Assembly: GCF_000002995.4 (NCBI RefSeq)
Contig: NW_025062475.1
Location: forward strand, 124,001 to 188,000
Length of the DNA: 64,000 bases
Direction: 5' to 3'
From: Brugia malayi
Lineage: Eukaryota; Nematoda; Chromadorea; Rhabditida; Onchocercidae
Position numbers and translations under genes: made by a program. Position 1 is the first letter of the stretch; each line of letters begins with the position of its first letter. A model generated the notes under the pieces. That model was given only the letters and a program-made list of their open reading frames with translations, was not told where the DNA came from and made no database searches. This document shows, in pieces, positions 5,053 to 63,829 of the stretch.

Positions 5053-8000
5053 TTAAAAGTTACGAGTTATTTGTGGTACTGGTTGATATTGTGGAAGAAT
5101 TGATTTTGGTTTTGTATCATAACTCAAAATACTACTATAATTTGCTTTTTCAATAAAATTTGCAAACATTTGCAATGATGGTCCACCGCGATCCAACGGT
5201 ACAAAATGACCCGCACCCTAAAGAAATAATTTTAAAATCGTTTCTTAATAAATTTAGTAAAAAAAAATTATAAATTTCAATTAAAAAATATTGTGAATTT
5301 TTTTTATCAAAATAACGTATTTATCATCATTCATCTTACCTAATTAATTTATTCATAAAAATTTAACTTTTCTTTTTTGAACAAATTAGATTAATCTAAC
5401 TAGTACAATCATTACATTACAAACATGTTTTTGATGAATTAATTGAAATTAAATTAAGATTTCTAACCTTTAACCTCTCATTCTAGCATCTTATCTAATA
5501 GAATCAAAATTTGAATAAAAGATTAGCAAAAATAAAAAATATAAGGATATTTTTCTTGCTTTGAAATGACTATAAACTAGTTTGTTAAATAATGATAATA
5601 ATAATTTAAACTTTTTTTTTTTTATCTCACTATAATTTTTATCATTTTTTATTGAAACAATCAAAAAAAAAAAAAGAAAAATTACTAACTTTTACAGTGA
5701 CATAATCAATTGTCACATAATCACTCATAAAAAATTGCTGATAATAACCAGCTAATTGCTCAAGAAATTCTGAATTTTCTTGATAAGTCCATAATTTACG
5801 ATTTGATTTTGGATAATTATTAGTAATTCTCATCACAAACCATTCATTACTCAAAAAATTATATTGAATATCAGCATCACCATTATAAATTAATATTCGT
5901 ATATCATTTGGATAAACTATAAAGAAAAAAAAATTTTTTTTTTGTTTTTAATTAGTAATTAAAAAAGTAAACAAAAAAGAGCAAAGAAAAATATGTAATT
6001 ACTAGGAATGAAAGTATTAAAATCGTGATCAAAATATTCACGAAGTGAAAAGTTTATTTAACATTTTGTAAATTTTGTAAAGGTTTTTTTATTTTTTATT
6101 TTATTTCACTTTAATTCAAAAAAAAAAAAAATGAAATGAAAAATATTTAAATAAGAGTAAATTTTATATTATGTAACAAAAAAAAAAAAAAAAAAAGAAA
6201 GTTTCTTCCTCACAAAATTATATTAGTTACATAAATCAGTGCAAAAAAAAGAAGAAAAAATTAGTTTAAAAACATTATTGTTTTATTTGAACTTTTGCGC
6301 TCACTTTTGCGCTCATTCCATCAAACATGCAAAAAATTTTGATTAAATTTAAAATGAGTAAAAATATAAACAAACTTAATGGGAAATGATGAATAATTGA
6401 TTGAAAAATAGGCATCATATCAAGATATTTTCTTTTATAATTCGATTGGAACATTTTACTAAAAAAAAAAAAAAAATAATATAATTAAAATTATTTTGCT
6501 AAAGTTTGAAAATATTATATAATTTTAGTAAAATTGCAAATTATGAATAACATTTTTTATTATTATCATAGTATTTTGTCCTTTTTTTTGTTTATTGTTT
6601 ACCCTCATTAGAGGTAAAGTAAAGTAAATCTATATGACAATTCATCAATTTCAAAAAATTATTTTGTTTTAGGAAACAGAAAAAGAAAAAAGAAAGGAAA
6701 AAGAAACGTAAATGATATTATATGCATTTAAGTAAAATTAATTTTAATTTCAATTTGAAATTAGAATAATTAGATAAAATAAATTATAATAGTAATATAT
6801 TAACCTGCACATTGACCAAGATGGTAAATTATTGGGAATATTTAATGCTTCTCGTACAGTTGATAAATTTAAATAATTTTTTATTGCATTTTTAATCCAA
6901 CATGGAAAACCATATTGTGCATCAGTTGATTCAATATTTATGAGTGACTGAAACATTATCATACTTATATTTTAATTAGATTACAATTAAATGGTTTTTT
7001 AATTTTGTATTCATTACCGTAAAAAATTTATACAATTGATTTTTTTTAAATATTTAGCATTTTTTTTTAAAAATATTTATCAGTGAATTATTCATTTTTC
7101 CTTTTTTTTTTTTTGGAAAAAAATTGAAAAATTGAATGAAATTTCATGTGGAATTTAAAATAAGAATTATTAATTATTAATTTCAAAATTTTTTTTTATT
7201 TGATTTTTTTGATCTATCATAAATATCAATAAGAAACGTACACCTTGATCGATAAATGTTTCAGGTGAATTTACATTAAACATTGGTTGTTGTTGATAAT
7301 TCATTGTTTTCATTATTTTTATATCATCCGTTGATATCGGATCCATATAGCAATCTTGATATTTATTAAAAGAATTTTCTCTAAAAATAAAAAATCTTGA
7401 TTTCTAGAAATTTCTAAATTATTCCATTTGTTTGCTTTTTCTTTAATTCAAATAGTTTTTTTTTTTTTTTTTTTCAGAAAAATAAAAAATAAAATTTAAA
7501 AAGTAAAAAAAGAACTTTTTCTTTCATATTTTACATTTTCAAAAATTTTAATAAATTAATTATATAGGCTGAAAAAGAAGAAAAAAAAAGTTTCGTTATT
7601 TTTTCAATTGATTTTATAAACTTACAAATTTTTTTTTGAATATTTCTTTTTTTTAATGCTATCAAATTACATTAAACTGCTTGACTTTTAGCATTTATTA
7701 TCAATTTCAAATTGCCAAAAAAAGAAAGAAAGCAAAAAAGAAAAATAAATACAACAAATTACTATTTGAACAATAATAAACATACAATTATCATACAAAA
7801 AAATAAACAAATGAATAACAGCAGAAAACAATAACAATGCGACAAATGCGCTTAATGTTTTGTCAAAAATAAACAAAAAAAACTTACAATCGTTTATTAA
7901 ATGCATATTTCGTTATTTTGGATGCACATTCACTATTATCGATGGGTTTATTTGTTGTCCAATTTATAAACTGCGAAAAGTTACAATATGCCAATGGTCC

Positions 8001-11488: not shown

Positions 11489-14229
11489 GAAAACAAAATT
11501 TTATTTTTACAGAAATGACTTTGATAAGAAATTGTACTTACTTATTTCAATTTTTAACCTTAACAAATTCATTTCATAGAATTAATCATTTTATTTTTTT
11601 AATTAAATTATTGGAAATTATTTTAAATGAATTTTTGCAAAATGTTTAAGCGAATGAGATGTAATTTTAAAAATATCTAAATTTGTTTACATCTTAAAAT
11701 ATTTGTAAAATATTTTTAATAGAAACATTTGCAAAAATATTGCATTCCAATTTTACTAATTTAACTCTAAAACTATTTCTTTTGCACAATAATCTAATAA
11801 TAATAATAATAATAATAAGTGTTTAATTTCATTTTAATTATTTTATTAGCAAAAATAATTATCAATATGACAGTTAAAGTTTCGTTTTTTTTTTTTTTTT
11901 TTTCCATTTTAACAGTTGGACCAAATCAAAATAATCTTTGTTTTTGAAGAATTTATTGAAATATTTTACTTACATTTATAAAGTAAATGAAACTTTTTTT
12001 TTCGTTTGCAGAAATTACTTTTAGATAAAGTAATAAATATGAATAACTTTCCATTGCTTTTTCATAATATTTTCTCATTTGCAATGAAATTATCAATTTT
12101 TTCATACAATATTGTTTATCAAATATTTTAATTTCTTTTTTCTTTTTTTTTTTTCAAATAAACTTAAAAGATCAAAAAATTTTTTTCAAGACCAAAAAAA
12201 TACATAGTACATTAATGTTGTTATGAAAATTATTTCAAACAAAAAAATTTTAATTAAAAAGTACAAAATAAAAAAGCTAATGTTTATAAATATTTCATAT
12301 TGCTAATATCTTTTCTTTTCTAACTAGAAATATCATTCAAAATAAAAAATTTTCTAGCATTATTTTTCGAAAATTTTTCATCTTTTAATTTTTAGATAAA
12401 AAAAAAAAAATGAAATTGCAGATTATTAAACTAAGAAAATTTGAGTTAGCAAAGATGTTTTTGTAATTTTGCAGAAAAAAATTTAATTTCACATAAATTA
12501 AGTTTTTTCATTTTTCCTTTAAAGAAAAAAAAAGTAAAAATATTGTTTATATTTAAAATGAATATTATTTGATGCTAATTCATTCTATAATATTTATTAT
12601 TTCATGCGTTTGTTCAAAGAATAAAAAATTTTTTAAAAAAAAGTTTTTGTTAAATTTGATGAAACATTTATACTTTTAAGCTATTACAAATACAATAAGA
12701 CAATAAGTTTACAAGTACAATATGCTATAATTGTGCTCGTAATAAATTGTATTTCATATTATAGATAGATGAGATAGACAGATTAGATAGATAGATCAGA
12801 TAGATAGATCAGATAGGTAGATCAGATAGGTAGATCAGATAGATAGATCAGATAGGTAGATCAGATAGGTAGATCAGATAGATAGATCAGATAGGTAGAT
12901 CAGATAGATAGATCAGATAGGTAGATCAGATAGGTAGATCAGATAGATAGATCAGATAGATAGATCAGATAGATAGATCAGATAGGTAGATCAGATAGAT
13001 AGATCAGATATAGATCAGATAGATAGATCAGCTGGATAGATAGATAGATAGAATGAATATGAATAGTTAATATTTTATAGTTTCATTTATTTGTTTCATT
13101 TAATAATTATAATTTGAAAAAAAAAAAAAAAAAAACTATTTTCCTTTAATATGAAAATGTAATAAAAACTTTATTATTAATAAAATACATATATATTTGC
13201 AACTTTTAATTGAAACGAAAAAAGTTAATTAATAAACAAATAATTAATTGTGAGATAGTTTTAATAAAATATTAGTGGAAAATGACGAAAAAGGAATAAA
13301 ATATTGATTAGAAATGTGATTAATATTTCGTCAAAAATTTCAAAAAAAAAGGAAATGGAAGAAAACATTGTTTTAGTTTAAAATTATTTTTTTTTTTTTA
13401 GTAAATTATCACAAAAATTGTAAAATTAACTCAAATATATTTCCCTTTTTTTTTTTCCACTTTTTTGTTTTTTCTAAATTCAATGAAATAAATAAGCTTT
13501 TGTTGTCAGTGCTAAAAAAGAACTCAAAATGCTTAAAAAATAAAAAAATAAAAAAAAAAAAACAAACTTAAAAATGTTTAATTGGAAGCAAATTTTAACA
13601 AATGCAAAAATGAAAAATTATTTATTGTAATTAAATTTTGATAACAATAAGAAATTAACTAATTATATACATTAAATAACATTTCAAAAAATGATTTAAC
13701 AATATAAAAGTCATTTCCTTCCAAAAATAAAGGAAAGGAACAAAAATTAATTAATAAATATATTTTTTTTTTTTTTGCAAATAACAAAAAATTGAATTTA
13801 AATTGAAAAGAAAAATTAAAACAATAAAAAATAATTTTTTGAATAATGCTAATTTTATTGAAGCTTTCGATATATATTAGATAAAAAAAAAAAAAAAAAA
13901 AACAAATTTGTTTTTTTGTAAACTTTTAAAAGTTAAAAGTTTTTGTTTTATAAAATAACAACTGAAAATACCCATTATCATTGTTAAATTGATTATATTT
14001 TAACATTAACATTTGTTTTATTTCGAATACTGTTGTTTAATTCTTTGATATTCTAAAAATGAATAAAATATAATTTGAGCAACAATTTGGAAGAATTTCC
14101 TTTTTTTTCTTTTTTTTTTTGAAATTTTAATTAAATTTTAAAATTGAAAGTTTAATATTATAATAGAAATAAATTATTGTTTTATTATTTCATGTAATAT
14201 TAAATGATTAATTAATGAAAAAAAAATTT
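11375..14229. other. Intergenic region between carboxypeptidase B and the four-TM gene
   Basis: About 2.85 kb of AT-rich DNA with long homopolymer A/T tracts and the 13-bp minisatellite described separately. It should contain the promoter of the minus-strand carboxypeptidase B just above 11374. No convincing exon was seen, although a splice-acceptor-like site near 14055 could give the four-TM gene an alternative last exon. Confidence 0.5.
12767..13055. repeat. 13-bp GATA-type minisatellite
   Basis: About 20 tandem copies of a 13-bp unit that begins GATCAGATAG and ends in either ATA or GTA. The two variants alternate, partly in an ordered G-G-A pattern (a 39-bp higher-order unit). One shortened copy and a plain (GATA)n run lie at the right end. 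Intergenic. Confidence 0.93.
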
Positions 14230-17723: not shown

Positions 17724-20700
17724 TTAATGAATGCTTTCATCATTATTGGATATTACTCGAGTAGTTCGTTTCCTAGCCATTTCCATATTATGAGCTTTAT
17801 TTCGTGCTGCATTTTTTGCTTGATGAACATCCTTACTTTCTGATATCGATGAAACTAAGAAAAAAAATCAATAAATATATATATATATATATATTTAAAA
17901 CAACGGTATTTTTATGTATGATATTGAAGCAAAAAGCAATAGCTAACATATTTAAAGCTATTTCTGACTTTTAAGATTTGCCAAATTTCCTAGCTATGGA
18001 TATTAATTTAATCATCATTGTCCTTTGTTACTGAACGAACACTCCACTAGAGATATTATGTAATTTCTTAAAAAAAAAAAAGAATTTACTTTCCACAGGT
18101 TCATCAGCATTCCATGAAATATTCCATTCTCCATCTTCCATTACTTCAGTAGATATTCCACCTGAAAATGTAACAAATTAAGCTGATATTGTTGCTTTAA
18201 CAAATTCTAATAGTCCACTATAATTTTTTCAACTCTTTCAAATTCTCATTCTTCACTTTTCTTATGAGCATAAAAAATTTAATGTATCAGTAATATTTAC
18301 ACAAGAAGTTGAAGAAATTAATAATGAACCTGAGCTAACATCGAAATCATCCCAACCGCTTGTACTGAAATTATCACTCCAACCATCAGTCAGTGTATCA
18401 CTGCTATTCTTTACTGCAAATGTGTTCCTATTCGTAACTTCATTGTCATCTGCGCTCGACTTAGATTTAATGCCTAACAAACAATTCAAATCATCTTCAC
18501 CTGTAAAAATATATTCCATATTTTAAATTATTTGTTACTTAATACTATATCACTTCAGTGTGACACATCTAAATATATATTATATCGTTTTAATTACTAC
18601 AATCGATTTAGAATCTAATTTGCTTTTTCTTTTGAATCATTCTAAAAAAGAAAAAAAAAAAGACCTGTAGATTTTAAAAATGGACGTTGCAATTTTAATC
18701 CTTTTGTTCCTGATGTTTTCCCGAATGGCTTCGAAGATGTCGTAGTAGACGGTTTACTTTTAGCAGCTATTACCTACAAAAAAAAAAAAAAAAAAGTGCA
18801 TAAAACAACTGAACAAATGATTTTAATCCAAAATTTTTTTTAGGTTAAAATAATTTATTATAAATTTTAAAAATTAATAATCTCTATTTTCAGTAAGAAA
18901 TATGCGAGAAATTATCACAAAAAAATTTTCCACAGCATTTTTTCTATCATAATGAATACTCTACTGGCTTTTAACTACACACAAAAACTTGTCATATTCT
19001 TTATGCCATAAAATACACATATGCACTATTATACTTCCATAATTTTCCGTCAATTACGATGGTGAAAATTTCAAGAACTATATAAAACATCTCCTCCTCT
19101 GAACATCTCCTCCTCTGCTAATTCTTCATTTCGAACTTATTCTTACTGATAGATAATAAAACTTTAGTAACATTCATATAAACTCATCGTTTCTTCAATA
19201 CTTCAGGGCAAAACTAGATTAGCATAACTCTTCTATTACTCATAAAATCATCTTTTTCTAAAATCAAATCCTGCTCCAATCTATTTTTAAGTGTAAAACT
19301 CATAATTAAAAGAGAGGTAAAATAGCTGCTTACCAAATAGTCTTGTTTATGAATTTGATTTAAAATTAACAAATTAAATTCAATTTAATTCTTACTTCTC
19401 TCTGTTCATTATCATATCTTTCGTTGATGTTTGTGGCATTTATTATTAGTACATCATTAGCATCTTCCCACTCATCTTCATTTTCTGCAGCTAAATTATC
19501 TTCCAATTCACCCCAACCATCATCATTTGCAAATTTCTCTGGTGCTGTATCATATGATTTTAATTCAGAGGATGTTTTTGTGTTAGATTTTGATTCACAA
19601 ATGGGTGCTTCTTGCTTAGGTGCTGACCCAGATTGGTTTTGCATTGAGGAAGAGTAGAATTTGCCTGAAAGTGATTTTAACGCCCAGCTTGCCCATTGTG
19701 GCACCTGAAATATATTATCATGTGGTATTAACAAGTTGATAAGGCCATATTCTTCGAAAGAGAATATGAATAACCTGTAAATAACGGAAATTACATTTTT
19801 AATATTTATTATCTCTCCTAATTAAAATTAGAGAAGGAAGAGATGTCGTAATTATTATTTGATTGATCAAAAATAATAAAAACAGTTAGTAGTATTAAGA
19901 AAATAATAATAAAAAAAAAAAAAAAAAACCTTGTCACTACTTAGCAAACCGCTTTTTCCACCAGCTTTAACTTGTGATTCGAGTTCTGCTATCAGTTCTG
20001 GATTTTCACTAGCTTTTTCCAGCTTTTCGATGAATCCATATAGTGCTTTGAAGCTTTGATCTCTGACCTGAATGTATATTACTTTGCTTTAAAAAAGAAA
20101 AAAAAATGAGTGTCAATAATATGCATACTAAGTAATAAAAATAAAAATGTGATAAAATGTGAAAATGCCTCATGGTAATAGCTACAAGCAATCTAAACAA
20201 ACTTTCGATGTAGATCAAACTAATTCAATCAATCAATGAAAAAAAAAAATGAATCAATCTCTTCAAAATTGTGTATGTTATGAAAGTTTGCTTTCACTTT
20301 CAATATATATTTTGTATCATTTTGCAATTTTATCTAACTATGACGAAATATAGTAAATGAAATGTATGTAGCGAGTTTAGTGGAAAAAATTAAACATAAT
20401 TTGTTCGCGAGATTAAATAACAAAATTTTACTAATCTTAATATTTTATTAAAATTTAATATTAAATGACCTGCTTTTCCTGATCACATGTCACTGGTGAT
20501 AAGGCTGGTAATATACGATTTGCAACTTCAATTAATGAGTAATACTGTTGCGTAGCACTAAGTGCTAGAATAGCTGCCATTCTAGCAGGAGGAAATGGAT
20601 CTTTGAGTGCACGAGTGAAGGCACTAATTAGAATTTGTTGACGATGACTTGGATCAATGTAACAACCAATTTTACCGAGGCAAATTGTTGCATTTGTTCG

Positions 20701-23700
20701 AATACCTGGTTGATCATCTGCGCCTGAATGCATTTCAAATAATAGAATCAATTCATTCTAAGATTTTTGGACACATCAAATTATTTAAGGAAATCGTTCT
20801 TTAAAAGAAGTTATTGTTGAGATTATTAAGAGAGAATAATTTGGAAATGGAGAGTTTTTTTTTTTTTTTACCATCAAGAAATAAAGCTAAGGATCAATTT
20901 TTTATGCGTTTTATTTTTACATCACATTTTTAAGCTTTGAGAGAAACATAGGAAAACTTCGGTAGTATAAACCTTACCTTGCAATCTTGCTAAATGCCGC
21001 ATCAGATCAGTATTTAAATTTTGATTATTCAATTTATCAGCCAGCGAAACCATTGCTTTCACTGTACTTTCACGGACAGCCGGATTTGTATCCATAAAAC
21101 CAGATGCAACATTCCTGAAAAATAAACCTTGATCTTTATTACAGTTTCACTGCATAAAAATTATACTAATTTAAGATAAAAAAAGGTGCATTTTCTTAAA
21201 TGTATTTTTCCAATTTGATACTCCATGACAATGTCATTACACTTGTAGTAATTCGAAAAAAAGAAAAAATGCGCATAATGCATTTTGAAAACTTTCCAAA
21301 AAACAAAAATCCAAGAACCAACTTATATATCCGATCGTTAACAATTTGAGGCGTTAAATGCGGTGCGAATTCATCAATTCGTTCTAATAATTTTACACGT
21401 GTTACACGATCCGGTGAACTAAATAATTTACAAAGGCAAGGCACAATACGAAGCTGATACTCATTTTCATCCAATAAACGTCCCAATCGAAACAATGGCA
21501 TCAAAACATGCGATCCAGCGTCACCATATTCGTAACTCTGTCATTAATAATAAGTAGGTAGAATAAGGATTAATGAATCTTGAACTTCAAATTAAGCAAT
21601 AATGCAATTGTGATTGAAATAAGTATTGCATTTCTTTTTTTTTTTCTTTTATTTTGTAATTGAGAAGAAAAAGCTAAAGAAAAACCTATTGTGAGAAGAT
21701 ATAATAATAAATATTACTTGCAGTCTTTTAGCCATATATAACATACATGTATTAATTTTGGAAGAATCCTATATTTAGCAATGTTATCAGGAAAAAAATC
21801 CAATTCATTTTTCAATTCTGTGAAGAATGCCTGCTTTTCATGAGCATCTTTCAGTTGAAATTCATCCAAAAATAGCAATATATCTACATATCGATTCTTA
21901 AAAAAGCCTCCTGTTTGACGCAATTCTAAAATTTTTCCTGTATTATTATTGTAATATAATAAAATTTGATCAAAAAATAACATGCCAAACTTATAATAAA
22001 AAGTGATGTTTTAGTAAATAAGGGAAATAATTTGTTGACTAATAAAAAATGAGCACAAATATAAGTAACAACAGTTTTTTTTTCATTGTTCGTGAAAATT
22101 TATTAGAAAAAAAAAATGGCAAAAAACTTAAAGAGAAAAAGTAAAAAACTATGAAGCAGTACCTCTTAATAATTCTCCAGTATTTAGTTTAGCTGCTCGA
22201 TTAGTAGCCATTTTTTTATAATGCACATGCAGTTGTTGAGGAACTCGTTTTGGTGCTTCCGGTTTCGTTATCGATTCATTGAAGCCGTTGAAAATTTCCC
22301 ATGTAAGTAATGCGAATGAATTAAGATCAGTACATGGATTACTAAAATAAGGTTAATTTAAATAAAAGCTATCAGTATTGAATTAAATAAAACGCAATGA
22401 AAAGTAAATTTCAAAAAAGGAAGGAAAGTATTTCTCGATGGTAGAGAGAAAAAAGTGTACCTAAAAACGGTTGATTTTTCAAAACCACCAAGTTTCCAAT
22501 CTCCACTTTCTGTGACATAAACAGAGTACCGGATATTTTCATGACTTAATTCGGCCTCTTGATGCAAGAATTTTAAACAGCTCTGTAAGCTCAGGATTCA
22601 TTGGTTTTCATTTTCACTCACACAAAAATAACAATATGATAGACTAGTAACTGTATAACGAATCCACAAACAAGAATTTTAATTAATCTCTGAAGCTCTG
22701 AGCTTTGTTCTACTTTGCAATTATCTTGAATCTTGAATTCTTTAAAAACACATTTCGGAACTTTCCAAAAGCAACAATGAAAGTCTAATATATTATTATT
22801 TAATTCCAAAATGAAGCATTTCCATTTGTTATACTCAGAAAGGCTGACACAAATGAAGCTATCTATAATTGAAAAATATTTTACAATTAAAAAAATGAAA
22901 AATGCAAATAAATCTATAACGGCAAAAAGAGACATACCAGTAGCTGAAATAGACCCCAGGAAACAACAAAATCTTTTTGTTTATCAGTTAGTTTGTTTTC
23001 CGTAATATAAGTTTTCAGAGGAACGCAAGCTTCTGTTATCAAATAAAAAGTACCATTCATCTGGAACAAAAACTAAATTAGTGAGTACTGTAAACTGAAT
23101 ATCATTAGTGCTATCAGTTGTGATTTCAGAAATATTAAGCGTGGAATGCTAAATTAGCAACTATGAAGTCTCAAGCTACATTATTATTCATGAAATGAAT
23201 CTTAAACTCTTGAAGAAATGAATATGCAATATAACTTTTGAAGAAAAAAAAGTTTGTTAAATTAAAGTTTGACAAAAAAAAAAAAAATTAAAAGCTATAT
23301 TTACAAAATATTAAAACCTCAACGCTATCCAAATAAGCGAGAACATTTGGGTGCCGGAGAGTTTTCAGTTTACGTGCTTGAGCTTTCAGTACTGATCCTG
23401 GACCATAATCGGATACTGTTGCCCAGAAACAGGTAGCAAGTTCGGATGGTTCAGCCTGAAATAATACTGAATTATTGACAAGTGATATTTGAAAATTAAA
23501 CTTCCTATAATTCTTATTTCAGACAAACTAAAATTCATCTAAATTAATTATTTTCTTAAAAAAATGCCTTTTTTTTTCTTTTTTTTTTTAAGATGAAACA
23601 TTACTTTTTTAAAGCTTTTTCCAATGTATATGCCATCGAAGGTATAAAAACTGCTAGCAGGTAGCTCATATGGGAATACACTTTTTGGATCACGTGAAAA

Positions 23701-29242: not shown

Positions 29243-32200
29243 ATGGATATTAAAATTTCCATTATTGGAGCTTTAGCACTTGGCTCAATATTCATTATTG
29301 TTGGCGTTCTCTCTCTAACTATCGTTCCATTAACGGTAAACAAGGAAGTTATCAAGGTTTATTTATTTATTTTTTAGCATAATCATTTTGTATTCAATAA
29401 CATAAATTAATAAATTGCAAATAAGCAAACAATTAAATAAGCAGATAATATGCTATCTTTATTTATTTCATTATTTTAAATATTTAAAATACTTTTTTAT
29501 ATCTTAATTATTAGATTAGCAAGCTAATAGGAATAATACTTGTTTTCTATGGAATGATTAATGATTAATGATATTTGAAGTGTAGATTTTTTATCATTTG
29601 CAGTTGTTAAGTATATTATTTAATTTAAAATGATAGTAATTGTGAATTAGTGGATTGATTGAATGAAAAAATTATACTTATGACTTTTTAAAGTAACTTC
29701 AATTACAAATAATCTCTCATATTCTAAGCATTAAAAAAAAAAAAAAAAGTTTTTTCTTTTTCTTTTATTTTAGCATTTTTAATTTTAGAATGAACATTTG
29801 GGTTACGATGAAAATGGTACTTATAATGTAATGACTCAGCGTTGGATTGAGCAAAAATATTCAATGAAATTGAAAATATGGACAGTTTCTGTGGCAAATC
29901 CAAATGATATTTCAAAAGGAAGCTATCCTGTGCTTATTGAAAAAGGACCATATGCTTACACGTTAGTTATTTGTGTGCAATTTATTTATTTATTTATTTT
30001 TTTGATGTTTAATATAATTTTTTCTTTTTTGCTTTTGATTATTTCCATTAGCTAACTTGGATATTTGATGAATTGATAAGTAAAAATTGTACACCTCTCT
30101 CTCTCTCTCTCTCTCTCTTTTCCTCTCTTTTTTTAAGAAGATAATATCTTTTACAGGGAATATCGGAAGAGAGTAAAGGTAAATTTCATGCATAATAATA
30201 CACGTGTACTGTTTCGTAATCAACGTTATTACATTTACAATAAAAATGAATCATGCGCAAATTGTTATTTAAATGATACGGTTATGATACCAAATATTAT
30301 GTTCCAGGTATGTATGATTTTTAATGATTTTCCTTAATTTATATTTAATTATGGTGAAGATTTATTTCATTGTTATACTAGAAAAAAATATAGAGTAAAA
30401 AGAATGAGAATAGTATTACTAATTGATATTAATTTTATTTCAAAATTTTTCATTTATTAGAAATTTAAGTTCAACTGTTTTTCTTTTTTCAAGTATATAG
30501 CTAATATTGCTGCTAAAAGTGGTCCAATGGTAAGACAAGTGATTAAACTTGCTCTTCAACAATTCAAATATGAAACACCATTCATTAATGTAACTGTGAA
30601 TCAGGTTCTCATTTTCTTTTTATTATTATTATTATTCAACCAATATTTATCTCTTCTAGTTTTAGTAAGGTTACTTAAATAAGTTTGTATGGAAAAAAGA
30701 AAGACAAAAATTTACTGCTAATTCGTAAAAAAAAAAAAAAAAAAGAAGTGAAATTGAAACATTTGAAGGTGAATTTGATAAGATTTTTAATTCAGTAAAA
30801 TATGCGCAAATTAACAGTGAAACAATAATGCTATTAAATGTATATGCAAATTTTAATGCAAATAATTTTTTCTTTTTTATTTTAGATGCTATTTGAAGGA
30901 TATGAAGATCCGTTAATAAGAATGATTTGTGATAACAGCTTAATTCATAATCTATGTATTGCTGCCGGGATTCCAATGCGTGTAAAATTCCTGGTAAATT
31001 TTTTAAATTATTTGATCAATCTATAAGTATGAAAGGTTTTTTTTTTTTCTTTTAATTTGATCTCATTTCTTTTCAATAAAAGTTTAACCTAAATCTCTTC
31101 TAATTACAGTTATAAATGAAGAAAGAAAAACTTCCTGAAATAAAAATTGTATAACTACGTCTGTTATGATGATATATGTGAAATAAGATTGATTATTTTA
31201 AAATTTATAATAAGATAATAAACTAAAAAAAAAAATGTCTTTTTAAACTTAATAAAATAATTGAATGTGTGTGTGTGTGTGTGTGATTATTCTATTCTTA
31301 TTTGTAATGACTGTTTTTTTTTTCTTTTTTTTTTTTTCAGAAAAAAAATTTTAAATCTTTGATAAGTATTTTTTTTTTTTTTTTTTTTTTTTAGGAAAAT
31401 GGTACAGATAATGGTGAATATTTGATTGATACTGGATTAGAAGATAATAGTAAAATTGGTCAAGTATATAAATGGAATGGACAAAATGAAACACCATGGT
31501 GGAGCACTGCACAAGCACGTAAAATTAATGGAACAGATGGAGAACTATTTTCACCATTTTTATCGGAATCTAATAATTTACCCATTTTTATTGGTGATTT
31601 AGGCAGGTAAGATATTTTATACTAATTAATCATCAAATAATTTTATAATTTTTAGAATATTAATCTTGTACAGTACTTTTCATAATTCAAATATGCCTAA
31701 TTCTCCAATGAGTAAGCAAGAAGAGAATGATTTATTTGAGTTAAATTGAGTTGATTATATTTTTGGTTTATTGTGCTTTTATGTTTGATACTTTTAAGAT
31801 TCAAAAAAATATATGTTTTTTAAATTCAATGGATTAGTGTTATGCTCAGTTACTTTTTTTTTTTTTAAAAAAAAAAAAACAATTCATATTTTTTTAAATC
31901 TATTTTTTACTTTTTCTTTTCTTACTGTTTAGTTGGCAAATGACAAAAATTTTTTCTCCATTTAAAATGTTTGATCTAGAATAACTTTTTTTTTTTGAAA
32001 TGATTCATTTAAAAAAAGAAACTAAAACTCTAAAAGGTGAATTTATTTTCTTCATTCGTTGAAAAATTATTAATGTTATTGTAAAAGTTATTGACCTTAC
32101 CTTTAGAACTTTACAATTTTTGATTTGCTTCCTATCCCTCTCCATAATGAATTTTTTGATGTAAATTGAGATTTCTTTAGCATTATTTTACTTTTAGTTT

Positions 32201-39966: not shown

Positions 39967-47548
<7,582 letters not shown>

Positions 47549-51210: not shown

Positions 51211-54200
51211 ATGGAAATTATGCGGAATGGTTACTGCGCTATAAAATCAGCTATTTTAGCAGTAATCGAATGGCGTTCCGCTGCTTCTGCACCATATTTT
51301 ATGTTTATTAATAGTGCTTTTTGGTAAGTGAATATTATTTTTTTTTTTTAAAAAAGAATAAGTTTTTGTAAAGATATTTAAATGATAAAATGATAAATAT
51401 ATATCCAGTTATTATCTGTGTTCGATTGTATTGAATAATCGATTGATCTTAATTATGTGATAAGAGAAGAGATAGTATGTGATAATTTAAAAGGAAGGTA
51501 AAGTGTCTTTTATTTCGATAAAAGAATATACTGTAGAAAAATTGCAAATAGAAAAAGTTGATTCTAAAAAATTGGATCAAAACATATCTAAAAAGAAAAA
51601 GAAGAGAAACGACTAAATGTAAAAGTTACTGGAAAGATTATTTAAGTCTCAAATTTTTTGAGCGTTTCTTTTTTTTTTTTTTTTTGTTATAAAAGATTGC
51701 TTTCGTTTCATTTTTCTTTATTTTTAGGTGGAGTGTTTTTTATTTGGATAAAGGAACACAACTACGATTATTGATCTCATTTGCTGCAGGTGTCTTCAGT
51801 TGGGATATTTTATTATCCTCAACTTATGATCGAAGTATTTTGTGCCATATCTTAACATGGCCTATACGAAGTGTATTGAGGGTTAGTTTTTGCAAATTTT
51901 AGCTAAAAAGTTTTTAATCGAACACTTTTGGTTAAGTTTATTGCGGTTTGAAAAATGAAATAAAGGAATGAAAATTAGGACAACAGAATTTAAAACTATA
52001 AAAATTCATTTTAAAATATGATTTTTAGAGTGAAATACGATTGTAACAATATAATTGGCATTATGCTAAGTTATAGATTAAATTTCTTTCAGTTCTGTCA
52101 TTTTGATCATTAATAACTTTTATTTTGTGATTCATTAGCATTGATATAAATTTGAATGATAACTCTAGTAATTTCAAAAATATTTACTATTTCTTTTTTA
52201 CAGACGGCAAGCGTAGTAATGGCATTGTACAGTGCAAAGTTCCTTTATTTGACCGAATTTGAAAAAGCATGTTGGAGTGCATATAGTGCAGGTTTTCTTT
52301 TTTTGATTTTTTAAAGATTACATTGTCAGTAAACACATAAACAATGATATATACTTTTGGCAGTTGTACTTTTTACTTCCTATAATTTTTATAGTATTTA
52401 CTTTGTAAAGATGTGCTTCTTAATGTGCTTTTTATTGAATTTGACCTCTTATAACTCGTTATTACTTAATTTTCTTTTTTATTTGATCGCATTCTAAAAA
52501 AAAATTTTACTTTTTTAGTTGGATTATTAATGATAAACCCGGTATGGCTATACTATCAAATACCACAAAAGATCAACGAATGTTTATATACAGTGTGCAT
52601 AACAACGAAATATATTGCTGAGATAACTATCATTTCTCCTTTCTGTAAATTTTATAGAATTCTTGATTATATCATCAGATTAAAATGGCTGATAGGTTTG
52701 TTTTCCTTATTTTAAATGTTAAAAAATTTTTTCTTTTTAATTTCATGTTTTTGTTGATATTCTTTCTGTTGCTATTTAAAATGTTTTAGTTTTTTAAAAC
52801 TAAAATTTCCAACAATTTTAGGAAAGCTTTGAAGTGTTTAAGAAGTTATTTTTGTCTTTTTTCTTATGTTTTGAAAGAAGAATAATGTCTTTCAACAATG
52901 TTTTATTTATTTTTTTATTTTTTTTTTTTTATGATTTTTTGTTTCTTTCCTTTGTTGGAAGAATTTGAGAGATATAAAATTTTTATTTCGAACTTTTTTT
53001 TTTTTTTCCAGCAATACTAGAAAAAATCATGGAAGAATTACTGAGGATAAAAGCAACAGTAAGAAGTATCTATGTTGCAACAATTACTAAGTTATGCGTT
53101 GGAAAAAATGCTGTGCTAAATGTTACAATTTCAACCTTATTCAATCTTAAGAATTTCATATTATGCACAGTTTACGAATTTAGAAGTAAATTTTATAAAT
53201 TTTTCACTACTATCAAAATTTCTTATTATCTATGAAAATATTGTTTAAAGTTAATAATTGGCATGAAAAATAGTAATATGTATATTTACAGTGGCAGTTA
53301 TAAATGGAATAGTATTTCTGGTAATGACTACAAGGAATGGAATATTAAATGCAATAATGAGTACAAGGAATGGAATAGTTTTCATAATAACATTTCTCAA
53401 AGATGGAATATTTTTTGGATATTTGACACTTAAAAATGGTTTAATTGGCATGATTCTACGATTAAAGCACTGTTTAAATGTGGCATTTATTAGATCAAAA
53501 GATGCATTATATTATACTATTATTGCTATAAAAAATTATATTCATTATACATTTGTCACTGTTCAAAATTCAATTTTGAATTTTTTTTCTGCTCTTATAA
53601 GATGGATAAAAACGAAAATTGTTAAACCAATACGGAATGCTTGTCGTGCAATTATTCAATTTCTACAATATTGGCTGTTTGCTCATTGGTGGCCTAGTCT
53701 TAAGTCTTGGTTTATTCTAAATATTACACTTCGGCTACAATTACTTTTTAACTATTTCTGCTTTGGTCTTGTATATATTTTTCATGGCTATTGGTTTAAT
53801 CCATTTATTGTTTTTCTTTCAAGATATTTCAAATGTTTTTATAATTTTTTTCAACAGTCTATCTTGAATCCAGTTAAAATGTAAGTGATTTTTGATTCTA
53901 AAAATTTCAATTATTTTAATTTTAAATTATTCCAAAATGTTTATGATTATTTTAATAATCTTTGTTATCTGTTTGTGTTATAGTAATTTTTAGACTTCGT
54001 TTCTTTGCATATTTCAGATGGATTAAACACCAAATTGATAAAGTTTTGGTATATATAAAACGATTGTTGCGTACTTTAGCGATAAGAGTGCGCGACAGTA
54101 TATTATGGCCTTTCTTTGTATTACTTATTTCATTAATGCATAAGGTATGTACTCTTAGTTTATAGTTTCTTTGCTTTTGACTTCAAATCAAGACAGTATC

Positions 54201-55614
54201 TTTTAATATACGGGAATAAATGGATAATGATTTTTTTTTTTTGATACCTCTTGAATGACCTCACTTACTTGTCAAAAAACTACTTAAAGTTTTTTTTTTT
54301 TTTTTTTTTTTAATTTTTTGTAGGCATTCTTTTCAGCATTTTTTTGACAATTTCAGGTCTGCGCACAACTTTATCGAATTTTACTGCAGCCGGTAATTGA
54401 TATTCTATATGAGAAATATAAAGTATGCGAGGACTACTTATTAATTTATTGTTTAGGTCCGGTTTGCCAAGTTGTTGTCAATCATATTCCTGAAAGATCG
54501 CCATTTTGCGGTAAGTAATTTACATTTGTATTCTCTAAATCTTTTATATCTCAGATTTTTTTTTTTACCAATGATACTTAAAGTACTATACTCTTTGTCT
54601 TTACACCGCTGTTTTTTTAAAAAAATAAATTCCAACAACTTTCTGATAAAAAAATCTCTAGAATATTGATTGGTATAGAACAAACACAACAAATCTTATA
54701 ATTTTAATGTAATATGAGATTTTTTTTTTTTTTTTTTTTTTGCGATACAATTAGCTGTTTAGATGATACAGATACTGAATTAGCGGATTTGCTACCACCT
54801 GGTTTCAGTAATGAAGAAGAATCTGACATTGAAGAAGCCTCCGACAAACCTTCGTTACCAAGTCGATCTCTTAGTCCTTTCACAGGTCATTTTTAAATTT
54901 CTGTATGTTTTCGAGCCAGATTTATTAAGCAAAATACAATAAGCTATTTCATTCTTTTCACTATCACTGTGAGAAATGATTTTCCTTTTTTCCCTCATCT
55001 TCAGTTTCAGATATATTTGTGTAGGCAACTTAATTTGTATCTTTAAAACTATTATTTTCTAATAGTTACAAGTCATTACTTTTTTGTTTTTAGAAGATGA
55101 ACGTGATTTTGTTCGTGGTTTGAAATTCCCGAACTTAGATAGTTCAGACTCAAGCGAAGCTGAATTCGCACTGAGAACGAAGTCAAATTCTCAGAAATCG
55201 TTGAGAAAAAGACCAAAGATCCATCCAAAAGATCCAGCACCATCGACTTGCAGTGATAAGTTAATTTCAAGAGCACATAAAACACAGAACGATGAAAATA
55301 AATATAAGCGTTCATCGTCAACAAGTAGTCATTCTGAAAGTATGCCTTCATCGTCTGCTCAGAATGCATCAGATGATGCGAATCTTCAAAACTTAGATGC
55401 ATTTGATTTTGAATCGGAGAGTTGTCCGGGAGCAGAATTTCAGAGAGATACTGTGGAAATTCAAAAATTGGAAGATTCCAATGATGAAAGATCAAATGAT
55501 AGAAAGCAAAATATGGATCAGAAGAAAATGGGAGAAATTGAAGTTTGCTGTGCAGAACAAATGAGCTTAGCAACAGTTTTTAAGGATGATAGCTTCGAAA
55601 TTCTCGATAAATAA
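51211..55614 (+). CDS. Membrane protein with 11-residue hydrophobic repeats and C-terminal LIR-like motif
   Basis: Ten exons (about 51211-51323, 51728-51881, 52204-52290, 52519-52695, 53012-53186, 53292-53880, 54019-54144, 54357-54512, 54761-54886, 55094-55614) join with agreeing phases into about 740 residues. The N-terminal third has hydrophobic hairpins around WRSAASAPYFMFINSAFWW and LRLLISFAAGVFSWDILL. A central region (53303-53665) is eleven consecutive 11-residue units such as NGILNAIMSTR, NGIVFIITFLK, DGIFFGYLTLK and NGLIGMILRLK, with K/R at position 11 and usually N/D at position 1. Further amphipathic segments follow (WIKHQIDKVLVYIKRLLRTL). From about residue 525 the protein is hydrophilic, acidic and Ser-rich (ELADLLPPGFSNEEESDIEE), ending FKDDSFEILDK. 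FEIL preceded by acidic residues fits an LC3-interacting motif and resembles the tail motif of FAM134/RETREG ER-phagy receptors. Orthology to that family is inference only; a lipid-droplet or other membrane-curvature protein is the main alternative. Confidence 0.72.
53303..53665 (+). repeat. Eleven consecutive 33-nt / 11-residue coding repeats
   Basis: Within the sixth exon of the gene at 51211-55614 the frame divides into exact 33-nt units starting at 53303, each encoding 11 residues. The first three units are similar at DNA level (acaaggaatggaat recurs exactly 33 nt apart near 53329 and 53362), suggesting duplication more recent than in the later, diverged units. Confidence 0.85.
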
Positions 55615-61402: not shown

Positions 61403-63829
61403 ATGGAAAAAAATTCATTATTTACCACAATCACTACCACCATCGCCGATATTCCAACAACTGCTGCTATCAGTATGGATAATAAACCTCCTGCTTACGC
61501 TCCTATTAAAAAAGAGTATATCGATGAAAAGAGTGATAATCCAAGAACTAGTTGTGGTTGCTTGTTTGTCGTTCTTTCTTTTTTTTTTTTAAATTAGTTT
61601 TTTTTTTTGGTTTTTAAATTGGTTTTTTATTTGCTTTTCTAGTCGATCTTCTTGTTTGCATAATTTTCATCGAGCTTATGCTTATTTTGTTAGCTCCTCC
61701 ATACATTGCAAAGCATCAATTTTTTTTTTTTTTTTTTTTTCAGAAAACTATGACAAAGTGGTTATGGAAAGACCGAGACATAAATATCGTGGCATGAACC
61801 GCGAACGCAGAAAGGAAATGGCCAAGGTTCGTCTTTTTTGAACTTTGCAGTATTTGAATGGTGCTTTCATGAATATCTAAAGAAATAAAATTCTTGTATG
61901 TGAAATCTGACCAAAGTCTGAATCGAAATGCAGGGAGGTAAGTATTTTGCATAATTTTGGATTTTGGATGTTTGTAATTTTGGTGCAACTGTGGATCTGC
62001 ACAAACTCGAGGAACTTATTTCCTCACAGTATTCCACTAACACTGTTGACAGTAGTTGATAGATGACCAAAATAGTTAATGACCTCCATGCTGTCTTCTT
62101 ATGTTTACTCCCATGGATAAAATACGTAACTAATTTTAAAAAAATGAATCTCATTGAGCAAGTTAGTCTGCTGAATCTAATTTGGCAGCTTCAAGCAATT
62201 CTAAATTAATATAAGTGATATCTAAGCTAATGATTGGTACGTATTGTCTTGGTGGTCCTTGGATTTATTTATATGTAAGTCATCCTTTGTGTGTCTCCTT
62301 CAGAAATCTGTCAAATCTTATAATTGCTTTAATATTGTATAATTCAAAAAGAAGTCAAAAAAACCGTGATGGTCTCATCGATTGACTTTTTATTAATCCA
62401 TTATATTATAATTCAAGTAAATATTATTTTTTGGTCTTCCTGGGTAATCTATTATTTTAATGAGAAGCATGTTCACTGTTAAATATGCTTTTTTATACTT
62501 TCAAATTCTTTATGCAACTAATCTTTCCCATCGCATGAGATTTATCCGCTTTATGCATGTTGGTTTTTCTTCTGATCTTTTTTTTTTTCTTTAGTTTTAG
62601 GATGTTTTCTTTTTTTGCTCAGAACTGACGAAAAGGATGAGGATTAGTACTTAAGATTTTGGACTCAAAACTAAATTATTATTTCATTCTGAACGCACTG
62701 GATATTTTTGCAATTTGCTTGGTCATCAGTTAATTTGTCATTCGCCGATGTTTCCAGAAAAATGTGAGCTGGCCCGTAAGGGATGTTTGTGAAGTCAGAT
62801 CAGAAGCTATAATTTGGGCCGTTGAGCAGTTACCTTGTCTATGGAATTTAGCATGTGAAGATTATCGAGATAGGACAAAGCGGCGACAGGGATGGTCTAC
62901 TGTTAGCCGCATGCTTATTCATGATTTTGAAAATAAGGACTTGACAGAACGTCAAAGAATTGGTTAGTTTCATAGTTTTCGTTTTTTTTTTTTTTTTTGT
63001 TTTCTTTTCACTTTCCTAAAATATTTAACTTTGTTCGTAATTTTTGGGAGGTGTAAATTCTCAAAAATTTTTGTTGAAATTTCTGAAAGCCTTGTGTATT
63101 TCAGAAAAAGAAATACAAAGTAAATGGAAAAATATACGCGATTGTTATGTGAGAGATGTACGAAGAAAGAATGGCGAAGGAATAAAATCGAGAGGTAAAC
63201 GAACGCGCGAATATATCCATGCCGGATTGCTAGCATTCCTGGGTACTCCGTGTGTTACTAAGCCAGATTCTGTTCATTCTTCAGCAACTGATCCTGGAAA
63301 TTCTTGTGATTTCGTTCTCGATAATACTGTGAAGCCTTTTTTGGACCATAGTGCAGAGGTTAACTGTAACTGGATAAAGCAGGAAAAATTGGAGGAGGAA
63401 CTGAGAATAATTCTGGAAAAACGATGTCCGGATCCGGAAGATGATGAAGATAGCGCTTTCTTCTCTACCTTACTTCCTACTATAAGAAATTTGGATCCAG
63501 AACAAAAAGTTGAATTTCGTTTGGAAGTTCTTCAAGCTCTACGGCAAATTACTACAAAACAACCATCGCCACCATTACTTTTTCAATCCGAAAATCTAAA
63601 CATTAGCTCTAATGCTAATTTATCAGGAAGTGTGTCTAGAAACGGCAGTATCCCTTCGAAAACTGAAAGCAGTGTTATTTGTTCGGGCATCTCTGGCTCA
63701 GACTCTTTTGCTTTGCAATTTAAAGCTACTGAAGACTTTATGATATCCTTGCGAAATATGCAGCAGGAATGCTCTGCATCTTTAAGATCCTTATTATCGT
63801 CTCTTACTCAACTCAGAAGTATTCATTAA
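61403..63829 (+). CDS. MADF-BESS domain DNA-binding protein
   Basis: Four exons at 61403-61556, 61744-61826, 62758-62962 and 63105-63829 join in frame to about 388 residues. The N-terminal exon is Thr-rich and contains KPPAYAPIKKEY, a PPxY motif that can bind WW domains. The second exon is basic (RPRHKYRGMNRERRKEMAK). The MADF domain (about residues 90-190) shows AIIWAVEQLPCLWNLACEDY, RDRTKRRQGWSTVSRML, EIQSKWKNIRDCYVRDVRRK and YIHAGLLAFL, with the spaced Trp residues typical of this Myb/SANT-like fold. The C-terminal part has DSAFFSTLLPTIRNLDPEQK followed by VEFRLEVLQALRQI, which fits a BESS motif. MADF-BESS proteins bind DNA through MADF and self-associate through BESS, acting as transcription regulators. 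Targets are unknown. Confidence 0.85.

What the first reader, a model, noticed from the sequence alone, without database searches (positions are those of the whole stretch)
53012..54144. Eleven or more consecutive 11-residue hydrophobic repeats in a membrane protein
Starting at 53303, the translation divides exactly into 11-residue units, each with K/R at position 11 followed mostly by N or D. Related segments (KNAVLNVTIST, KNFILCTVYEF) lie upstream and amphipathic ones downstream. 11-residue periodicity is the signature of 3-11 helices in membrane-surface proteins such as alpha-synuclein and perilipins. Here the units are far more hydrophobic, with one polar stripe, suggesting a long helix embedded along a membrane. 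I do not recognise such an architecture in any family.
Basis: partly seen in the sequence, partly recalled or inferred. Interest (0 to 1): 0.75.

Follow-up and report, generated by a model that had tools for sequence, protein, structure and literature searches.

The report
Probable nematode ER-phagy receptor, repeat-rich
A little-studied roundworm membrane protein looks like a distant cousin of the receptors that mark pieces of the endoplasmic reticulum for recycling, but it carries a very long helix of the membrane-hugging type, built from a variable number of 11-residue units.

Summary
The repeat is real. The window holds Brugia malayi gene Bm2796 (10 exons, 739 aa). Residues 177-350 have their strongest hydrophobicity period at 3.67 residues (98.2 degrees per residue, the 3-11 helix; p 0.0005). 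Seven clean units lie at 53303-53533; four degenerate ones follow. Orthologues occur across chromadorean nematodes. The stretch between conserved anchors varies from 46 to 229 aa (about 4 to 20 units): of 26 measured, 17 lengths are 2 mod 11 and six filarial ones 6 mod 11.

The N-terminus resembles the RETREG/FAM134 reticulon-homology domain, but weakly: Pfam E 0.0011 in one of 26 members, below cut-off; profile comparison beats 100 of 100 shuffles with Plectus and 99 of 100 without, at low hhalign probabilities. The C-terminus is an LC3-interacting-type motif, FE[LIVM]L in 26 of 38 proteins, like the FAM134B LIR in PDB 7fb5. I read the protein as a RETREG-like ER-shaping and ER-phagy receptor whose amphipathic helix has become an in-register array of variable length. 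ER location, membrane binding and Atg8 binding are inferred.

The parts
51211..55614 (+). Whole coding region of Bm2796, 10 exons: 51211-51323, 51728-51881, 52204-52291, 52519-52695, 53012-53185, 53292-53880, 54018-54144, 54357-54510, 54763-54885, 55094-55614
   Evidence: All nine introns GT-AG; translation identical to the public Brugia malayi protein over 739 of 739 residues
51259..52598 (+). Reticulon-homology-like region, residues 17-145; hydrophobic segments near residues 26-44, 52-70, 87-105 and 111-129 (two hairpins inferred)
   Evidence: Pfam PF24456 in the Plectus orthologue, sub-threshold; hhalign to FAM134B/C; hydrophobic minima, which do not separate this part from the array
52692..53635 (+). 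Proline-poor 3-11 helix region, residues 177-350, spliced over exons 4-6
   Evidence: 98.2 degree optimum; 14 successive 22-residue windows keep one moment direction within 36 degrees
53303..53533 (+). Seven clean 11-residue units with K/R at position 11; four degenerate units follow to 53665
53627..54491 (+). Proline-punctuated amphipathic block, residues 348-519, spliced over exons 6-8; Brugia proline intervals after the HWWP motif 36, 23, 34, 23, 23, 10
   Evidence: Pro pairs at lag 23: p 0.00075 in Brugia, 0.00005 in Plectus and Toxocara
54498..54797 (+). Most conserved motif SPFCDDTDTELADLLP, residues 522-537, exons 8-9
   Evidence: Mean pairwise identity over residues 518-537: 0.77 in all 26 rows of A4
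55117..55167 (+). Second tail motif GLKFPNLDSSDSSEAEF, residues 575-591
   Evidence: 0.58 mean pairwise identity over residues 571-591 in all 26 rows; hhalign lays it on a DFPSL stretch of FAM134B, but E 0.086 only, inside the shuffle range
55585..55611 (+). Predicted C-terminal LC3-interacting motif DDSFEILDK, residues 731-739
   Evidence: FE[LIVM]L in 26 of 38 family proteins; in 18 of the 20 A4 rows that have letters there; FAM134B LIR in PDB 7fb5_B

Best explanation
Bm2796 and its nematode orthologues are RETREG/FAM134-like proteins of the endoplasmic reticulum. Two short hydrophobic hairpins (reticulon-homology-like region) hold the protein in the ER membrane. A long basic 3-11 helix, followed by proline-kinked amphipathic helices, lies in the cytosolic leaflet and bends or senses curved membrane. 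The acidic tail ends in an LC3-interacting motif that recruits the nematode Atg8 proteins (LGG-1/LGG-2 type), so that curved ER pieces are delivered to autophagosomes. The number of 11-residue units (about 4 to 20) sets the length of the helix; gain and loss of whole units keeps the hydrophobic stripe in register. Shown from sequence: periodicity, register, motif conservation, weak domain similarity. Inferred: ER location, membrane insertion, curvature, Atg8 binding.
For: 11/3 periodicity and fixed moment direction. Lengths in register across nematodes. RETREG RHD match in Plectus, E 0.0011; the RETREG guess was noted before the scan. hhalign of the 21-sequence N-terminal profile to FAM134B: E 5e-4, score 30.6 over 123 columns, reversed 14.5, at most 20.6 in 60 plain shuffles; class-preserving shuffles at most 24.0 in 100 and 21.0 in another 100; to FAM134B+C 29.2 against at most 20.4 in 100. 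C-terminal FE[LIVM]L in 26 of 38, like EGDDFELLDQSEL of 7fb5_B. The genome has Atg8-family exons (7 matches). In FAM134B, fragments holding the amphipathic helices drive directional curvature in simulation, and the LIR is needed for ER fragmentation (PMC6542808, passages).
Against: Brugia itself has no Pfam match; Plectus scores 18.9 bits, below the cut-off of 27. hhalign probabilities are low: 32% for FAM134B, 23% for FAM134B+C. Without Plectus (18 rows) they fall to 2.6% and 5.6%, E 0.018 and 0.0069, and 1 of 100 shuffles is as good in each case; ARL6IP1 reaches 4% at most, 1-3 of 100 shuffles as good. The tail comparison lies inside the shuffle range. A Haemonchus tail piece did not find the FAM134B LIR chains in the PDB at E up to 10. 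Simple hydrophobicity does not set the putative hairpins apart from the array (19-mer sums 4.3-6.1 against 3.8-9.8). 12 of 38 proteins lack the motif; two are labelled partial, several end early, causes unchecked; two Bursaphelenchus models lack motif and, by eye, array. The linker between hairpins is about 16 residues, against 60 in FAM134B. In cells, a deletion of amphipathic parts of FAM134B (the legible words name AHC) did not change ER fragmentation. A PF24456 search of the own genome found nothing, but is exon by exon and rang in no control.
Confidence: 0.55

Rival explanations
1. ER-shaping protein only: a reticulon/ARL6IP1-like curvature protein whose tail motif is not used for autophagy.
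For: Weak reticulon-homology signal and large amphipathic region; ARL6IP1 has the same hairpin plan but cannot bind LC3 proteins itself (PMC10247384, passages).
Against: The C-terminal motif is kept in 26 of 38 proteins and in 18 of 20 A4 rows with letters there, while the 592-728 stretch before it aligns poorly; it has the FELL core of the FAM134B LIR.
Confidence: 0.22
2. Lipid-droplet or other monolayer coat protein using a perilipin/synuclein-like 3-11 helix, made in the ER and moving to droplets.
For: 3-11 period; Synuclein Pfam E 1.5e-4 and 1.3e-3 in two strongylids, both below the cut-off; longer 11-mer helices target droplets better in Plin4 (PMC5889406, section 6).
Against: No PAT or perilipin family among the Pfam matches of 26 members; array far more hydrophobic than Plin4; RHD-like N-terminus and LIR-type C-terminus are not explained.
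Confidence: 0.1
3. The array is a structurally neutral spacer grown by slippage of a 33-bp unit; register is only a by-product of whole-unit duplication.
For: Near-identical units in Haemonchus (within-array identity 0.78) and variable unit number.
Against: Brugia units are diverged (within-array identity 0.22) yet keep one moment direction and the 98.2 degree period; proline intervals in the next block also tend to 11n+1.
Confidence: 0.13

Closest known systems
RETREG1-3 / FAM134 ER-phagy receptors (Pfam PF24456 RHD)
   Same: Order of parts: hairpin region, amphipathic helix after it, long tail, LIR of the DDFELL type near the C-terminus
   Different: Pfam match only sub-threshold and in one of 26 members; short linker between hairpins; in place of one amphipathic helix, about 170 residues of 11-mers plus about 170 residues of proline-kinked helices
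ARL6IP1 (RHD without LC3 binding)
   Same: Same Pfam family by hmmscan of the recalled sequence; two hairpins
   Different: No array; hhalign E 0.01 over 36 columns, 1 and 2 of 100 class-preserving shuffles as good
Alpha-synuclein (PF01387)
   Same: 11-mer period; 25 of the 29 PDB sequences listed for P0034 are versions of alpha-synuclein (one protein, many entries), E 0.094 to 3, so none significant alone; the other 4 are a nitrate reductase subunit
   Different: No membrane hairpins (recalled), less hydrophobic; Pfam cut-off not reached
Perilipins 3 and 4
   Same: Long 11-mer helices; net positive charge in Plin4 (passages)
   Different: No PAT or perilipin match; much lower hydrophobicity
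Phage tail tape-measure proteins
   Same: 11-residue pattern: four proteins, two so named and two unnamed, matched the family profile; in the two whose domains were printed, the best match covers profile positions 177-352 and 178-343, the array
   Different: No other shared part seen; I take it as convergence

Membership tests
RETREG/FAM134 | RHD at Pfam curated cut-off (PF24456, 27 bits) | tested here: not met
   Best of 26 members 18.9 bits, E 0.0011; the other 25 have no match to it
RETREG/FAM134 | RHD by profile comparison | tested here: inconclusive
RETREG/FAM134 | LIR of DDFELL type near the C-terminus | tested here: met
   As a sequence motif: FE[LIVM]L in 26 of 38; 7fb5_B
RETREG/FAM134 | About 60-residue linker with amphipathic helix between hairpins | tested here: not met
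   About 16 residues between the second and third hydrophobic segments of Brugia; 60 in FAM134B
RETREG/FAM134 | ER localisation, Atg8 binding, ER-phagy activity | not testable with these tools
   Needs experiment; Atg8-family exons are present in the genome
Synuclein | PF01387 at cut-off 23.3 bits | tested here: not met
   22.5 and 19.4 bits in two of 26 members
Perilipin | PAT/perilipin domain | tested here: not met
   Not among the 11 families matched by any of 26 members at E up to 10 (HMMER filters drop most weak matches)
3-11 helix proteins (structural class) | 11/3 hydrophobic period over many turns | tested here: met
Multi-pass transporter or receptor | A transporter or receptor domain | tested here: not met
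   None among the Pfam matches of 26 members; deposited names such as GPCR, bestrophin and TLC come with no precomputed Pfam domain

The most novel reading that the evidence does not exclude
Nematodes carry a fast-changing ER-phagy receptor in which the curvature-making amphipathic helix is a synuclein-like 11-mer array that lengthens or shortens by whole units while its register is under selection: a natural series of helices from about 4 to 20 units on one receptor, tuning how strongly each species' ER is bent or cleared.
Probability: 0.37. Interest if true: 0.78.

Novelty: new variant of a known kind. Interest (0 to 1): 0.6.

Why it matters
If true, chromadorean nematodes have an apparently unrecognised ER-phagy receptor, and its helix length differs several-fold between species while the rest of the protein is kept. 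That is a ready-made series for asking how amphipathic helix length controls curvature and autophagy; for lipid droplets the question has been put with perilipin 4 constructs of different length (PMC5889406). It would also place the synuclein-type 11-mer on a membrane-anchored protein.

Tried and rejected
The first gene model missed exon 4; searches used it. It was corrected from the orthologue alignment. Dropped: beta strands (best period 3.67 in a scan that reaches 2.0); coiled coil (more than half of the residues are hydrophobic; reasoning, not tested); tape-measure relationship (the array alone matches); transporter or GPCR (names without domains). NCBIfam gave six families at E 0.005-0.2, which I take as chance. 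Of the 11 Pfam families, nine besides RETREG and Synuclein had best E 0.028-3.8, taken as chance. PF24456 in the own genome: uninformative.

Ten paper searches: '11-residue repeat' + amphipathic helix + nematode, 0 papers; Bm2796, 0; CBG09774, 0. FAM134/RETREG with nematode or C. elegans terms: I saw 20 of 46, 15 of 96, 9 of 9, 20 of 188 and 3 of 3 listings; no listed title and no opened passage describes a nematode RETREG. Two more were background (4 of 4, 10 of 51). Opened at passages only: PMC7615515, PMC8004021, PMC6542808, PMC8727931, PMC9093606, PMC9126229, PMC10247384; PMC5889406 at passages and section 6 in full. No named Caenorhabditis protein was returned in three protein searches; word, length and candidate limits mean that absence is not shown.

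One of 100 was as good as the real score, so I lowered the main confidence from 0.6 to 0.55 and the novel case from 0.4 to 0.37, and raised two rivals slightly.

Full report
What is there. The finding lies in exons 5-7 of a 10-exon gene on the + strand, 51211-55614. All nine introns are GT-AG, and the translation is identical over 739 of 739 residues to the public Brugia malayi protein Bm2796. The window is part of an 86.8-Mb assembly in which the exon-6 protein has one match, itself.

Is the repeat real. Yes. Residues 177-350 (52692-53635 spliced) have their strongest hydrophobicity signal at 98.2 degrees per residue, 3.67 residues per turn, which is 11/3; the moment, 0.281, exceeds all 2000 shuffles and falls to 0.033 at 100 degrees. 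The direction of the moment stays within 36 degrees over 14 successive windows. The N-terminal part, the proline block and the tail have their best angles elsewhere (173.0, 93.8 and 129.6 degrees) and only 0.06-0.07 at 98.18. Seven units have K/R at position 11; the next four do not. Two DNA copies of 33 bp are still recognisable, 76% alike, so most of the array is old.

Orthologues. Three protein searches returned 38 family proteins from filariae, Thelazia, Toxocara, Steinernema, strongylids, Diploscapter, Mesorhabditis, Bursaphelenchus and Plectus, and five from a source without names; some species are there twice (for example Wuchereria, Dirofilaria, Acanthocheilonema). Four further hits are two phage tape-measure proteins and two unnamed ones. 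In the 15 proteins measured, lag-11 autocorrelation had p 0.0015 or less in 14 and 0.0165 in Steinernema glaseri; the spectral peak lay at 3.66-3.70 in 14 and at 5.42 in the Elaeophora model. Strongylid arrays read like IKNGIVYVVTS; Haemonchus repeats one unit almost letter for letter.

Register. The distance between two conserved anchors was measured in 26 of 38 proteins; the others are truncated or lack an anchor. In three proteins (P0030, P0035, P0040) I set the N-terminal anchor by hand, because the first pattern missed it or hit another place. The lengths are 46 aa in Plectus, 57 in Diploscapter and Mesorhabditis, 68 in three, 79 in three Steinernema, then 123, 145, 156, 167, 189, 200 and 211 (two): these 17 are all 2 mod 11. 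Six filarial proteins are 182 or 193, 6 mod 11. One unnamed protein (229) is 9 mod 11; Elaeophora and Wuchereria give 0 and 3 and look like faulty models, which I did not verify. A shift of 4 or 7 residues turns a 3-11 helix by only about 33 degrees (arithmetic), so the filarial class and P0020 nearly keep the stripe. Register is partly expected from duplication of whole units; the diverged Brugia units (within-array identity 0.22) suggest that it is also kept afterwards.

The next block. Between residues 348 and 519 prolines tend to stand 23 or 34 apart, 11n+1, with exceptions (Brugia 36, 23, 34, 23, 23, 10; Plectus 23, 22, 12, 22, 24, 23, 23, 23, 23, 10 beside two PP pairs). Lag 23 was picked after looking; it is the top lag in all six proteins tested, p 0.00005 to 0.0032. 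It recalls apolipoprotein A-I, whose helix Table 1 of PMC5889406 lists with seven prolines; this is an analogy only.

The flanks. Writing down the C-terminal motif suggested FAM134. The Pfam scan of 26 members then matched PF24456, the RETREG reticulon-homology domain, in one member, Plectus (E 0.0011, 18.9 bits, cut-off 27), and Synuclein in two, Cylicocyclus and Necator (E 1.5e-4 and 1.3e-3, also under the cut-off). The N-terminal profile (21 of 26 rows; five truncated or exon-skipped rows dropped) aligns with FAM134B over 123 columns, E 5e-4, probability 32%, above 60 plain shuffles and two sets of 100 class-preserving shuffles. With FAM134B+C the score is 29.2 against a maximum of 20.4. 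With ARL6IP1 added to that profile only 32 columns align, E 0.0019. Without Plectus (18 rows) the scores fall to 21.3 (FAM134B) and 23.9 (B+C), and 1 of 100 shuffles is as good in each case. ARL6IP1 alone scores 22.4; 1 of 100 and 2 of 100 shuffles are as good. So the RHD reading is likely, not proven, and leans on one species.

The tail. FE[LIVM]L stands at the end of 26 of 38 proteins. The 12 without it include two labelled partial, several that end early or oddly, Thelazia, S. glaseri with LELL, and two Bursaphelenchus models that by eye also lack the array. Of the 26 rows of A4, 20 have letters at these columns and 18 of those carry the motif. Mean pairwise identity in all A4 rows is 0.54 over the motif, 0.77 at SPFCDDTDTEL, 0.50 over the RHD-like part, 0.43 over the proline block and 0.25 over the array; the stretch 592-728 aligns well enough in only 53 row pairs, at 0.36. 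An earlier count with 14 proteins gave 0.60 for the motif, but all 14 carry it, so I do not lean on that figure. C. elegans LGG-1 and LGG-2 bind [W/F/Y]xx[I/L/V] with acidic residues preferred before it (PMC7615515, passage). The Brugia genome has Atg8-family exons (7 matches).

Mechanism. FAM134B is described as two hairpins plus amphipathic helices that bend the ER, and a LIR that binds the phagophore (PMC6542808, passages). I propose the same job here with a far longer helix: hydrophobic fraction 0.56, net +16 over 174 residues, about 26 nm at 1.5 angstrom per residue if straight (arithmetic). Two facts speak against a simple reading. Deleting amphipathic parts of FAM134B left ER fragmentation unchanged in cells. 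And the array's 19-residue windows are about as hydrophobic as the putative hairpins, so hydrophobicity alone does not tell which parts span or dip into the membrane. Shown are the sequence facts; ER location, insertion depth, curvature and Atg8 binding are inferred.

Verdict. I do not file it as a RETREG member, because the curated Pfam cut-off and the linker feature were tested and not met; I claim that it most likely works like one.

Noticed in passing
P0010 (B. pahangi), P0003 (Loa loa), P0009 (O. ochengi): Deposited models lack part or all of the array or exon 4; Brugia exons 4 and 5 have lengths divisible by three and could be skipped in frame. Real isoforms or annotation errors cannot be told apart here.
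   Followed up: partly
window 63041-63829 +: Open frame with MADF and BESS motifs, probably a DNA-binding regulator.
   Followed up: no
window 43896-44213 -: Probable exon of an RNA polymerase second-largest subunit (Rpb2 domain 3, E 7e-16).
   Followed up: no
window 20461-20754 -: HEAT-repeat open frame (E 2.2e-6).
   Followed up: no
window 29789-30052 + and 5642-5944 -: Open frames matching the CD36 family and serine carboxypeptidases.
   Followed up: no
orthologues P0003, P0005, P0008, P0009, P0014, P0019: Public names (GPCR domain, futsch, GPI mannosyltransferase 2, bestrophin, RING, TLC) disagree with each other and carry no precomputed Pfam domain; they look like misannotation.
   Followed up: partly
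window 12761-13052: Array of about 23 copies of a 13-bp unit.
   Followed up: no
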